Below are positions 9,079 through 12,341 of a stretch of 64,000 nucleotides of DNA, piece by piece; the first letter of the stretch is position 1; each line of letters starts with the position of its first letter. The stretch covers positions 186,001 to 250,000 of the forward strand of contig QHNH01000009.1 of the NCBI GenBank assembly GCA_003218375.1, read 5' to 3'. Below the pieces are notes generated by a model that was not told the origin of the DNA, did not search any database, and worked only from the letters and a program-made list of their open reading frames with translations. This DNA comes from Verrucomicrobiota bacterium. GTDB taxonomy: Bacteria > Verrucomicrobiota > Verrucomicrobiia > Chthoniobacterales > UBA10450. A program made the position numbers and the translations under genes.

Positions 9079-9100
9079 ATCAAGTAATCGTGCCTCTTCC

Positions 9101-9160
9101 AAGGAGCGGCGGTTTGCAACCGCCGAACAATAAAAACGGCGATGCAAATCGCCGCTCCTT
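9101..9160. repeat. AAGGAGCGGCG inverted repeat
   Basis: Left arm AAGGAGCGGCGGTTTGCAACCGCCG and right arm CGGCGATGCAAATCGCCGCTCCTT, with about 11 nt between. Each arm contains its own smaller palindrome (CGGCGGTTTGCAACCGCCG), so the structure is nested. It lies upstream of the ADH gene. Confidence 0.7.
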
Positions 9161-9261
9161 GAGGCTTATCGAACCGCCCCGGCTGTTGGCGTCACTCAAC
9201 GCGATTAGATGCCGCGTCTTTTCCGTGCTCGATTTAACGCTTCGCTTTGGCCGAACGATAG

Positions 9262-9650
9262 CACGCGCCCCAAGGTGCTATACGTGAATCACGTATAGCA
9301 ACGATAGAGCACGGCTACTCTCCCGCTGCGCGTGGCTCCTGGAAAGAGGCACTAAACCAGATTGCAAATCAGAGATCGGCAAGGACGGCGAAGCGCGCCG
9401 CCTTTTCCCTTCGCCCGGCCCAAACAACAGGCAGGCGCTCCAAGTGCTATACGTGAATCACGTATAGCAACGATAGAGCACGGCTACTCTCCCGCTGCGC
9501 GTCCTGCCTGAAAGGGGCGCAAGCGAGATTGCGGCGTCAAGGATCGGCACCAACGGCGAAGCGCGCCGTCTTTTCTCTTCGCCCAGCCAAAACAACAGGC
9601 ACGCGCTTCAAGTGCTATACGTGAATCACGTATAGCAACGCCAGAACACG
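9262..9650. repeat. 168-nt tandem repeat with a perfect palindrome in each unit
   Basis: Two full units (about 9262-9430 and 9431-9598) and a truncated third (9599 to about 9650). Each unit has a 25-nt palindrome near its start: TGCTATACGTGA, one A, then the exact complement TCACGTATAGCA, at 9277, 9445 and 9613. Palindrome spacing is exactly 168 nt both times. The rest of the unit is partly conserved (ACGATAGAGCACGG, CGGCGAAGCGCGCCG, AACAACAG). The whole 9079-9678 stretch holds no credible gene. A related palindrome occurs at 40274 and 43705. Confidence 0.85.
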
Positions 9651-9678
9651 CGCGGAAAGGGGGACTCGGGCAGCGTGC

Positions 9679-9909
9679 TCAATGGGTGAGGAGGGCGCCG
9701 AGGGCGATGAATGCGATTCCGCCGCCCCAAACCCAGAGCAATTGGGGGAAGCGGTTATAGGCGTCGCCAAAGGCAACGAACGGCAGAATGAGGTTGCGAA
9801 TCCCGCGCCAGAATCCGATCGCAAAGCCGCAGAACACAATCCCGATGTAGCCGACAAAGAGCGCAACGGCGCCAGTATAAAGCAAAACTAAACCGATGCC
9901 GTTCTGCAT
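9679..9909 (-). CDS. Small membrane protein, unknown
   Basis: A 76-residue protein with two clear hydrophobic segments (IGLVLLYTGAVALFVGYIGIV and LLWVWGGGIAFIALGALL) separated by a short loop. The start at 9909 puts the first helix close to the N-terminus; an in-frame ATG at 9978 would add a 23-residue hydrophilic leader. No domain is recognised. It lies downstream of the integron-type cassettes on the same strand, next to the 168-nt tandem repeat, and could belong to the degenerate distal end of the array. Confidence 0.55.
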   Translation of the reverse strand: MQNGIGLVLLYTGAVALFVGYIGIVFCGFAIGFWRGIRNLILPFVAFGDAYNRFPQLLWVWGGGIAFIALGALLTH

Positions 9910-9994
9910 GCGCGTGACTTCATCATCCCGTTGGCCGAAGTAAATACGCGAATGCAGCGAGCTGGAAAGCCGCGACATTGACAGCTAGAAACAC

Positions 9995-10426
9995 TCAATG
10001 CGCCAGCTTTCCGATCAGCGCGGCAAAGAGAAGAAAGATCAGCCCCAGCACGAACAGGACGGCATAAATCGCCAGGATAGCAGACAGGTGATGTCCGAGG
10101 ACCGTGAAAGCGCGCGACCAAAACTTCGGGCTGTGCAAGCTGCTCTGGGCCAGGCGAACCTCGAGGGCGGCGACGCGAGCTTCCAGGGTCGCTGGCGCCG
10201 GAGCCGCCACTGTGGCGGGCCGCAAAGCGGGCGTTGCCGGCGGTTGAGTGGAAGGTGACAAATCCGTCGACGGCAACGTGGAGATCGGCGCCCAGGCGGT
10301 AAGGCCCTGGTAGTAGATGAGATCGTCGCTCGACAGTTCGCCGCGCGCGAGCATCTCCCGCACGATCTGCGCGGGAAACGGCCCCAGCTGCTGCTTTGTG
10401 CTCTGACGAAAAACGGTGACGTCCAT
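9995..10426 (-). CDS. GYF_2 (DUF4339) domain membrane protein
   Basis: A 143-residue protein. Residues about 1-50 form a GYF_2 domain (QLGPFPAQIVREMLARGELSSDDLIYY, then W in LTAWAPIS), a small fold that in eukaryotes binds proline-rich peptides and in bacteria is usually fused to membrane segments. A Pro/Ala-rich linker follows, then a short heptad-like stretch (LEARVAALEVRLAQ) and a single C-terminal transmembrane helix (AILAIYAVLFVLGLIFLLFAALI). The start is ATG 10426 because it begins the domain cleanly. It lies next to a degenerate attC-like site on its 5' side, so it may be the last member of the cassette array. Confidence 0.7.
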   Translation of the reverse strand: MDVTVFRQSTKQQLGPFPAQIVREMLARGELSSDDLIYYQGLTAWAPISTLPSTDLSPSTQPPATPALRPATVAAPAPATLEARVAALEVRLAQSSLHSPKFWSRAFTVLGHHLSAILAIYAVLFVLGLIFLLFAALIGKLAH

Positions 10427-10501
10427 GAGGCCTGCCCAAGATAAATCAGCGCCGGCTACCGAAGGCGAGCTTTCTTTCCGATACCAGATAACTCCCAAGA
10501 A

Positions 10502-10540
10502 TTAACCGGCCGCCGTCCCGATAGGATCGCATGGTTAGAC
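10502..10540 (-). other. Degenerate attC site
   Basis: On the minus strand it begins with the perfect box GTCTAAC followed by CATGCGATCC, like the complete site at 10844, and ends in GGTTAATT (near GTTRRRY). Only about 25 nt lie between the boxes, too short for a normal attC, so this is probably a deleted remnant at the distal end of the array. The stop codon of the gene at 10535 lies inside the GTCTAAC box. Confidence 0.55.
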
Positions 10541-10828
10541 GAAAAAAAGTCGCCATACGAGCCAGATGCTAATCAAGGGACCGACGAACGCGAGCAAACG
10601 CGGATGTTCGCCTCGTGTCCAACCCCAGATGGACAGGCCGCACGTCAGAATGACTGCCGAAAGAGCGGAACAAAGAATAATGCCTGCCGCAGTGTAACCA
10701 ACACCCGGCGGATCGCCGAATTGCGCACTGATGCGGACAGCAACCAGCATGAGGATCACCGGAGTGACAAGCGCAAAGCAAAATAGGATCGGAGAACGCT
10801 TCGCAACGGCTTGCCTGATGTCTTCCAT
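10535..10828 (-). CDS. Cassette-borne membrane protein, unknown
   Basis: A 97-residue protein with three hydrophobic segments (ILFCFALVTPVILMLVAV, AAGIILCSALSAVILTCGLSIWG, LLAFVGPLISIWLVWRLFF). The start at 10828 is chosen because the longer frame to 10894 would begin inside the attC site. Its TAA stop falls inside the GTCTAAC box of the next site, a common cassette arrangement. Small membrane proteins of unknown function are frequent cassette cargo. No family is recognised. Confidence 0.65.
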   Translation of the reverse strand: MEDIRQAVAKRSPILFCFALVTPVILMLVAVRISAQFGDPPGVGYTAAGIILCSALSAVILTCGLSIWGWTRGEHPRLLAFVGPLISIWLVWRLFFV

Positions 10829-10843
10829 ATCTAGTGCGTTTTC

Positions 10844-10936
10844 GTCTAACGACCCAAGCTCAGCGACTCGGCCCGCGTGAAACGTGGATTGCAACCAAAG
10901 CGCGATGGCCGGGGTCGCTGCAGCGCATGGTTAGGT
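10844..10936 (-). other. attC recombination site (complete)
   Basis: On the minus strand: box R'' is ACCTAAC (10930-10936) and box R' is GTTAGAC (10844-10850), both exact matches to RYYYAAC and GTTRRRY. Inner arms GCAGCGAC and GTCGCTG pair, with one unpaired base, followed by CCGGCC/GGCCGA, and a terminal loop of about 30 nt. Length 93 nt. Confidence 0.9.
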
Positions 10937-10937
10937 G

Positions 10938-11189
10938 TCATGGCTCTTTCAAAATCGTGTATGTGCCCCGATTCCGACGCTCCATCTGAATGTAACCCTT
11001 GTCGCGGAGCACTTGGAAAACCCGAGACTGCAAACTGCCCGGATAACCCAAACGCTTGTGATAGATCTTGGAGACAAAATCAGCAAAGCCATGCTCCAGC
11101 AACTCAAGACCGGTAACGACATGGTCACTACCAGCCAACCGCTTCAACTCAGCGAGCACCGTCTTCTCATCTTGTGTCAGAGTCTCCAT
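10938..11189 (-). CDS. Cassette-borne winged-helix-like protein
   Basis: An 83-residue protein. The C-terminal half (SLQSRVFQVLRDKGYIQMERR then RGTYTI) resembles the winged-helix domain at the C-terminus of DpnI/Dam-replacing-type nucleases, which reads LQ-x-LRD-x-G-x-IxF-x-x-G-x-Y. A second possibility is a generic MarR- or restriction-associated wing. The start is ATG 11189, just after the attC end; the frame to 11225 would lie in the attC. The stop is 1 nt from the next attC box. It follows the nuclease-like cassette at 11305 on the same strand. Confidence 0.7.
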   Translation of the reverse strand: METLTQDEKTVLAELKRLAGSDHVVTGLELLEHGFADFVSKIYHKRLGYPGSLQSRVFQVLRDKGYIQMERRNRGTYTILKEP

Positions 11190-11201
11190 GCGCGTGACGA
11201 C

Positions 11202-11300
11202 GCCTAACGACCGGAGCTCAGCCACGCCGGGCCAAGGGACGTGAACCGCGCAGCGGAACTACAACCGCTCCCCGGCGTTGGCTGCAGCGATTTATTAGGC
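11202..11300 (-). other. attC recombination site (complete)
   Basis: On the minus strand: R'' is GCCTAAT (one change from RYYYAAC) at 11294-11300, and R' is GTTAGGC (exact) at 11202-11208. Arms GCTGCAGCCAACGCCGGG and CCCGGCGTGGCTGAGC pair almost perfectly with two single-base bulges, which is the classical attC geometry. Length 99 nt, with an internal loop of about 40 nt that contains a further GC-rich hairpin. Confidence 0.92.
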
Positions 11301-11304
11301 CTCT

Positions 11305-11784
11305 TCATTTCTTTTTTGCGATGGAACGGAACATCGGCACAGTGAGTGCGCCTTTCTGGGTGTGCGTCTGTTTCCCGTCTTCACTTACAGGTAAGCTTTT
11401 CAAGCGATCTTCGATCTGCTTTCGCGAGGCCTGAAGTATCTCCCTCACCTCGAAATCCTCATCCATGAGCACGAGCACAACCGCATCCCACGTCTTCTCA
11501 AAATCCATCTTTCCGATTCTCTGGCCGCTTTCGCGAGCGCTGCGAGGATACGCACGTCCTTTTATCTGAATCAGCACCTCTGAATCCGCTTCCTTCTTCT
11601 TGGCGTCGTAACCCGGGCTTCGGGCATCAGCCAACTCCAACCCGAGACGACGCGCCGCTTCAAACTCTGCGACCTCACCTGTGATGCCAAGCGGCTTCCC
11701 GGACAGATCCTTATAGCGCCGCGATAGTCGCTTCGCTTCTATGAGTATCTTTTCGATTTCAGCGAGCTTTTCGGAGGGGGTCAT
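11305..11784 (-). CDS. Cassette-borne protein, PD-(D/E)XK nuclease-like
   Basis: A 159-residue soluble protein. An N-terminal helical segment is followed by GEVAEFEAARRLGLELADAR, SPGYDA, then VLIQIKGRAY. The order E...D...QxK resembles a PD-(D/E)XK nuclease core (acidic residue before the helix, GYDA aspartate, QIK lysine) as in DUF6998-type proteins. Nuclease activity is therefore possible but unproven. The ATG at 11784 lies 10 nt past the preceding attC box, with no good ribosome-binding site, as often seen in cassettes. The gene is flanked on both sides by complete attC sites, so it is a mobile cassette. Confidence 0.75.
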   Translation of the reverse strand: MTPSEKLAEIEKILIEAKRLSRRYKDLSGKPLGITGEVAEFEAARRLGLELADARSPGYDAKKKEADSEVLIQIKGRAYPRSARESGQRIGKMDFEKTWDAVVLVLMDEDFEVREILQASRKQIEDRLKSLPVSEDGKQTHTQKGALTVPMFRSIAKKK

Positions 11785-11794
11785 ATCGTACGCG

Positions 11795-11919
11795 GCCTAA
11801 CGAGAACAAGATGAGCGACGGCTGGCGGGAGAGCGTGTCGCTTTAGTCTCATCCTTCATAATTCATCCCTCATCCTTGATCCACCGCTGCCAGCCATTCG
11901 CTCCATCGCGTGGTTAGAT
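11795..11919 (-). other. attC recombination site (complete, long loop)
   Basis: On the minus strand: R'' is ATCTAAC (11913-11919) and R' is GTTAGGC (11795-11801), both exact. Arms GAGCGAATGGCTGGC and GCCAGCCGTCGCTC pair with the usual bulge. The 125-nt length comes from the loop, which holds a run of the words CATCCTT and CATCC (about 11849-11883), the same words found in the hairpin element at 53807. Confidence 0.9.
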
Positions 11920-11967
11920 GGTTGACGTTCCAAGCAGCAACCGGCGGAGAATGAAAGCCAGTCCGAT

Positions 11968-12210
11968 TCAAAGGACGATATTGAAGACTCCGGGAACCAA
12001 AATCACGAGGACGAAATCCGAGATGTTCTCTGGGAGCGGGAGATACTCCACGAGGAGAATTCCCGGCAATGAGAGAATGCCCAGCGCGACATCGTACCGG
12101 CCGTGTCCGCCACCGAATCCATGCTGCGCGAAAAAAAGCGCGCTCGCGACGACCGCGGCCACGACCGGAACCGCTGGCAACCAGAAAAGCCGATGGGACG
12201 CTTTGACCAT
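11968..12210 (-). CDS. Cassette-borne small membrane protein, unknown
   Basis: An 80-residue protein with two to three hydrophobic stretches (LFWLPAVPVVAAVVASALFF, VALGILSLPGILLVEYLPL, FVLVILVPGVFNIVL). Its ATG overlaps the GTTAGAT core box at 12209-12215, and its stop is followed within 50 nt by a complete attC, so gene and site together form one cassette. No family is recognised. Confidence 0.65.
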   Translation of the reverse strand: MVKASHRLFWLPAVPVVAAVVASALFFAQHGFGGGHGRYDVALGILSLPGILLVEYLPLPENISDFVLVILVPGVFNIVL

Positions 12211-12226
12211 CTAACTACAATTAGAC
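12209..12226 (-). other. Proximal core-site pair, collapsed attC or insertion point
   Basis: On the minus strand the sequence reads GTCTAAT, TGTA, GTTAGAT: two core boxes separated by only 4 nt. This marks the upstream boundary of the array. It could be an attC that has lost all internal arms, or the scar of an attI-like insertion point. The gene upstream (12342-13088) shows no cassette features. Confidence 0.6.
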
Positions 12227-12341
12227 GAAAGAAAGTTTCGTCTATTCCCGCTTCCTTCGAGGGGCGGTGCTTGGCAAAGCGAAAGGGAGGACACCGCGGA
12301 CCTTTATCAAATCGGCTGGCGGACGGCAACGGAAAGTCCGG

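What the first reader, a model, noticed from the sequence alone, without database searches (positions are those of the whole stretch)
10502..12226. Integron gene-cassette array without an integrase
Three complete attC sites (10844, 11202, 11795) and two degenerate ones separate four small minus-strand genes. Core boxes fit RYYYAAC/GTTRRRY, arms pair with the typical single-base bulges, and orientation is consistent: each gene reads into its attC and starts just past the previous one. Start or stop codons overlap the boxes (12208, 10535). The window has no IntI. Cassette arrays are well described in Pseudomonadota; in a probable Verrucomicrobiota chromosome the cargo here is unfamiliar. Seen: boxes, arms, orientation. 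Known: attC structure. Inferred: past cassette insertion.
Basis: partly seen in the sequence, partly recalled or inferred. Interest (0 to 1): 0.85.

Follow-up and report, generated by a model that had tools for sequence, protein, structure and literature searches.

The report
Integrase-less cassette array with attI head
This stretch is a real integron gene-cassette array that still has its probable docking site but has lost its integrase, one of about fifteen such arrays scattered through a soil Verrucomicrobiota genome, and scattered, integrase-less arrays turn out to be the rule in its family.

Summary
The array is real. A covariance model of attC sites built without any window sequence hits the three sites on the minus strand (90.4, 48.9 and 44.6 bits; E 1e-25 to 2e-11). 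Cassette B encodes a probable methyl-directed type II restriction enzyme (PADLOC E 1e-29).

No intact intI was found in the 97.8%-complete genome; the only trace is a truncated 5' end beside an attI on contig C32. The genome holds about 38 attC on 12 contigs. An attI model made only from integrase-linked attI of other genomes finds 12 loci at E<=0.002, every one upstream of attC in the right orientation. In the family (Chthoniobacterales) attC occur in 83/83 genomes, attI in 69, IntI in 40; of the 123 best attI, 100 have no IntI within 3 kb. Six congeners keep the window locus's flanks but carry an unrelated gene there and no attC.

Best explanation: a decayed integron (attI plus cassettes, intI lost), now frozen here. 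Integrons, CALINs and their presence in Verrucomicrobiota are known; I found no description of attI-headed, integrase-less arrays as a genome-wide pattern.

The parts
12211..12245 (-). attI-like head: short hairpin (TAGACGAAA..TTTCGTCTA), spacer, crossover box G|TTAG; the ATG of gene A overlaps the box
   Evidence: (pattern match, expected 0.00); 95% match to the head of the C51 array. Same short element lies behind the 3' end of intI in congeners.
11968..12210 (-). Cassette A gene, 80 aa, small hydrophobic protein, no family
11795..11919 (-). attC of cassette A (125 bp, typical of the family)
   Evidence: R1 90.4 bits, E 1.2e-25
11305..11784 (-). Cassette B gene, 159 aa, probable methyl-directed type II restriction enzyme
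   Evidence: PADLOC PDLC03209 E 1e-29; weak DUF6998; weak match to NhoI structure, E 0.024
11202..11300 (-). attC of cassette B (99 bp, R'' box slightly degenerate: GCCTAAT)
   Evidence: R1 48.9 bits, E 8.5e-13; folds better than shuffles, z -3.3
10938..11189 (-). Cassette C gene, 83 aa, winged-helix-like (weak)
   Evidence: DUF6293_C E 1e-4, below cut-off; CARF3 E 0.008
10844..10936 (-). attC of cassette C (93 bp)
   Evidence: R1 44.6 bits, E 1.8e-11; similar short attC at C23:3045-3137 and G023:C20
10535..10828 (-). Cassette D gene, 97 aa, small hydrophobic protein, no family; its stop codon overlaps the R'' box
10526..10540 (-). Truncated attC of cassette D: R'' box, spacer and start of L'' only
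   Evidence: GTCTAACCATGCGAT on minus equals the family consensus start; the rest of the site is missing

Best explanation
The feature is the remnant of a small integron: an attI-like site followed by four gene cassettes in one orientation, whose own integrase gene is gone and whose last attC is broken. Shown: the cassettes, the attC, the attI-like head, no local intI, no intact intI in the assembly, and no array at the same locus in six congeners. Inferred: the cassettes were inserted at the attI by an IntI (single-stranded attC x attI recombination); the platform then lost intI by deletion, a process seen at several stages in this genome (C32) and in relatives; the array is now fixed and its genes persist as ordinary genes, one of them a probable methyl-directed restriction enzyme. 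Further movement would need an IntI acting from elsewhere, and none was found here.
For: Independent attC model hits. Head matches the attI class that lies beside intI in relatives. Genome-wide, 12 of 12 attI loci at E<=0.002 sit upstream of attC in the right orientation, one with a truncated intI. Decay series: intI with internal deletion at G037:C1 and fragments at G039:C18, G039:C36, G022:C4, G023:C54, G066:C54. Congeners keep the flanks but not the array.
Against: No intI debris is left next to the window head, so loss of intI at this very locus is not shown. The window head is a short variant (GTAG before the crossover) that the main attI model does not reach and that was never seen beside an intI. 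The assembly is a 52-contig draft, so a missed intI is possible.
Confidence: 0.7

Rival explanations
1. Distributed integron: in this lineage one or a few IntI serve many attI-headed arrays in trans; orphan attI are working docking sites, and this genome has only lately lost its IntI.
For: Orphan attI are the rule: 100 of the 123 best attI have no IntI within 3 kb, while 40 of 83 genomes have IntI. Hairpin and crossover motif stay recognisable in orphan copies. In G023 a cassette is shared at 91% between an orphan-attI array and another array.
Against: The sharing is old (91%), no trans activity is shown, and intI fragments beside several orphan attI point to simple decay. Some genomes have orphan attI and no IntI at all.
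Confidence: 0.2
2. Off-target insertion: cassettes were put by an IntI into an ordinary chromosomal site (attG), with no attI ever present.
For: Known to happen with class 1 IntI (attG work as cited in PMC12444791 and PMC12901181). The window head is short, and its GTAG variant is not seen beside intI. Some arrays of this genome show no attI head.
Against: Off-target sites should not share a hairpin-plus-crossover element; the window head is shared with C51 and with G021 and G022 loci, and 12 other arrays have model-supported attI.
Confidence: 0.08
3. Chance palindromes or another repeat family that only looks like attC.
For: Several palindromic repeat families occur nearby (window 9100-9162 and 9261-9650).
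Against: Independent attC model hits with E down to 1e-25, strand-specific, with the architecture of intI-linked arrays, and no hit in six syntenic loci of relatives.
Confidence: 0.02

Closest known systems
CALIN, cluster of attC sites lacking an integron-integrase (PMC8618304, PMC9024848)
   Same: attC sites in one orientation, small cassettes, no intI nearby
   Different: Here the array keeps an attI-like head, as do most other arrays of this genome; CALIN is defined by attC and absence of intI alone and says nothing of attI, which is not detected outside class 1
Sedentary chromosomal integron (intI, attI, cassette array)
   Same: attI-like head followed by cassettes; relatives have the same head beside full IntI
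   Different: intI is absent here, and the genome has about fifteen small headed arrays instead of one large one
Xanthomonas integrons with progressive intI loss (PMC12444791)
   Same: intI widely truncated or lost, CALINs at several loci
   Different: That study found intI at one ancestral locus (ilvD) and reports no attI at the distant CALINs
Delta-attI gene cassettes of class 1 and 2 integrons (PMC12901181)
   Same: Fragments of attI found away from the intI junction
   Different: There the attI fragment stands behind the gene in place of attC; here it stands ahead of the first gene

Membership tests
CALIN | At least two attC in cluster, less than 4 kb apart, same orientation | tested here: met
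   Three sites within 1.1 kb, all minus
CALIN | No integron-integrase nearby | tested here: met
   No IntI match in the window
Complete integron | intI coding for a tyrosine recombinase with the IntI patch | tested here: not met
   Only a truncated intI on C32; the other hits are XerC and XerD
Complete integron | attI next to the first cassette | tested here: inconclusive
   attI-like head by pattern and by kinship to intI-linked short attI, but not reached by the attI model and not tested for recombination
Integron attC | RYYYAAC / GTTRRRY boxes, paired arms with extra-helical base in L'' | tested here: met
   the R'' box of 11202-11300 departs at its last base
Integron attC | Recombination of the folded bottom strand by IntI | not testable with these tools
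   Needs a recombination assay
Methyl-directed type II restriction enzyme (cassette B) | Profile match to the family | tested here: met
   PADLOC PDLC03209 E 1e-29 over residues 10-156
Methyl-directed type II restriction enzyme (cassette B) | Cleavage that depends on methylation | not testable with these tools
   Needs purified protein

The most novel reading that the evidence does not exclude
In Chthoniobacterales the integron is a distributed system: many attI-headed docking sites over the chromosome, each with a small cassette array, served in trans by one or a few integrases that come and go. The short attI hairpin, bracketed by two G|TTAG-like boxes, might even be moved by IntI as a mini-cassette, which would explain its spread without intI.
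Probability: 0.2. Interest if true: 0.85.

Novelty: new variant of a known kind. Interest (0 to 1): 0.6.

Why it matters
Integrase-less cassette clusters are about as common as complete integrons in surveys (PMC9024848), yet their origin (decayed integrons or off-target insertion) is open, partly because attI is hardly described outside class 1. Here a family-specific attI model makes the question testable: in this family most attI have no integrase nearby, which favours decay or service in trans over off-target insertion. Its cassette pool is large and little described, and includes a probable restriction enzyme here.

Tried and rejected
Rfam at gathering thresholds: no match in the window. 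A strict box regex found only one of the three sites; it was replaced by a scan that allows a bulge and then by the covariance model. Of the genome-wide IntI-profile hits, C3 and C40 are XerD and XerC; only C32 is an intI remnant. The attI model R2 does not reach the short window head, so a pattern was used. tblastn ran on an emptied query file and is void; it was repeated. A clean empty site with base-precise junctions was not obtained: at the window locus congeners carry a different gene, at C42 the intergenic sequence is too diverged, and at C19:265138 the flanks are not syntenic. C2 and C32 looked like neighbouring contigs through G023:C13, but no exact overlap was found. Single-site folding z-scores are weak for two of the three attC, so the case does not rest on them. 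Hairpin pairing is good in many attI but absent in some, so no claim is built on it.

Full report
WHAT IS THERE. The window lies at C19:186001-250000 of a 3.96-Mb, 52-contig genome, 97.8% complete. On the minus strand between 12245 and 10526 there are, in order, an attI-like head, gene A, attC, gene B, attC, gene C, attC, gene D and a broken attC. The sites were tested with a covariance model built from 23 attC of which none came from the window array: three from contig C32 of the same genome, the rest from relatives, nearly all from arrays beside an intI. It hits 11795-11919 (90.4 bits, E 1.2e-25), 11202-11300 (48.9, 8.5e-13) and 10844-10936 (44.6, 1.8e-11), all on minus. The training alignment shows compensatory change: 10 of 24 pairs have both-sided changes. 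The extra-helical base in L'' is almost always G on the cassette-sense strand, so C on the folded bottom strand; the classic sites have G on the bottom strand, where a G-to-C change had only a mild effect (PMC2727003).

THE HEAD. Relatives have the same kind of element between intI and the first cassette: GGATTAGAC-hairpin-GYCTACTTCTCG|TTAGAY. A short form, TTAGACGAAACTTTTTCGTCTAATTCTCG|TTAG, lies directly behind the 3' end of intI in integrons whose intI runs with the cassettes (G023:C43, G008:C99, and remnants in G022:C4, G023:C54 and G066:C54). A pattern for the short form, whose variable positions were chosen with the window and C51 heads in view, matches the window once, at the head, expected 0.00. 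The exact window variant (GTAG before the crossover) occurs at four places in three genomes of the genus and was not seen beside intI.

THE GENOME. The attC model finds 38 sites at E < 1e-5 on 12 contigs. A second model, built from 15 intI-linked attI of other genomes, was run over the whole genome: 12 distinct loci at E <= 0.002, and each lies upstream of an attC in the matching orientation. Weaker hits (C42:70606, C10:172522, C27:95726, C52:69402) have no strong attC nearby. By my estimate the stretch within 2.5 kb upstream of attC clusters is about 0.5% of the two strands, so 12 of 12 is not chance. With the short heads (window, C51, C2:9265) there are about fifteen attI-headed arrays. Only one, on C32, has an intI trace, homologous to IntI residues 9-58 and then broken off. 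The two other tyrosine recombinases found are XerC and XerD. So no intact IntI was found in this assembly.

THE FAMILY. A congener's contig is PMSN01000023.1, a Spartobacteria MAG, and other close IntI come from Udaeobacter and Chthoniobacterales MAGs, so I place the family in Chthoniobacterales. In 83 genomes of the family: attC in all, attI in 69 with up to 13 matches (palindromic sites are sometimes counted on both strands), IntI at E <= 1e-30 in 40, of which 33 pass the curated cut-off. Of the 123 best attI, 23 have an IntI match within 3 kb and 100 do not; 49 of 53 genomes have at least one orphan. Contig ends explain some but not all: G038 (100% complete, about 20 contigs) has 7 attI matches and no IntI, and G037 (about 10 contigs) has 6 and one. 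Decay is visible in stages: G037:C1 has IntI residues 1-37 joined to 299-319 next to an attI; G039:C36, G039:C18, G022:C4, G023:C54 and G066:C54 hold fragments.

THE LOCUS IN RELATIVES. Six congeners keep the genes on both sides of the window array, but between them, in the four whose sequence I printed, lies another gene that reads like a luciferase-family monooxygenase (my reading of the sequence, not searched), and none of the six has an attC there. The stretch 9190-12340 is therefore particular to this genome. At a second array, C42:285321-285896, the two flanking genes are 57 bp apart in G020 and about 800 bp apart here, the difference holding attI, cassette and attC.

CARGO. Cassette B matches PADLOC's methyl-directed type II restriction enzymes (E 1e-29), in line with weak hits to DUF6998 and NhoI. 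Cassette C is winged-helix-like by weak matches. A and D are small hydrophobic proteins without relatives in the libraries.

READING. The simplest account is a small integron that took up four cassettes and then lost intI and the end of its last attC. 'Insertion by IntI' and 'loss of intI' are inferred from anatomy and from the decay series elsewhere; the window head itself has no intI debris. The alternative that orphan attI are served in trans where an IntI survives stays open: a cassette is shared at 91% between an orphan-attI array and another array in G023, and one at 95% between this genome and G023. Off-target insertion is disfavoured by the shared head.

WHAT IS KNOWN. Integrons are reported from Verrucomicrobiota, and CALINs with three proposed origins (PMC8618304). 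Xanthomonas shows intI loss with CALINs at other loci (PMC12444791). IntegronFinder 2 states that integrons typically have one attI close to the integrase and that attI outside class 1 are poorly described and not detected (PMC9024848). I found no paper on attI-headed integrase-less arrays as a genome-wide pattern, or on integrons in Chthoniobacter or Udaeobacter; the library is open-access only, so this is not proof of absence.

Noticed in passing
window 9100-9162: A GC-rich palindromic repeat of about 63 bp (AGGAGCGGCGGTTTGCAACCGCCG...), found at dozens of places in this genome and all seven congeners: a REP-like dispersed family.
   Followed up: partly
window 9261-9650: About 220 bp repeated in tandem-like fashion at 86%, with the perfect palindrome GCTATACGTGAATCACGTATAGC three times; found.
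   Followed up: no
window 9190-12340: This stretch replaces a luciferase-like monooxygenase gene that congeners carry between the same neighbours; besides the array it holds a GYF-domain gene (9995-10498) and a small gene (9679-9978) without counterparts there.
   Followed up: partly
L026 (G020:C24), L227 (G023:C43), L228 (G008:C99): A second integron layout in the family: intI runs in the same direction as the cassettes and attI lies behind its 3' end.
   Followed up: partly
A1 alignment, column 17: The extra-helical base of the family's attC is G on the sense strand in 22 of 23 sites, the reverse of the classic bottom-strand G.
   Followed up: no
L231 (G021:C4): A window-type attI followed by one cassette whose attC breaks off after its R'' box; the sequence beyond looks like a transposase gene.
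   Followed up: no
G000:C42:70606 and G000:C10:172522: attI-like hits without an attC nearby: possible empty attI or chance.
   Followed up: partly
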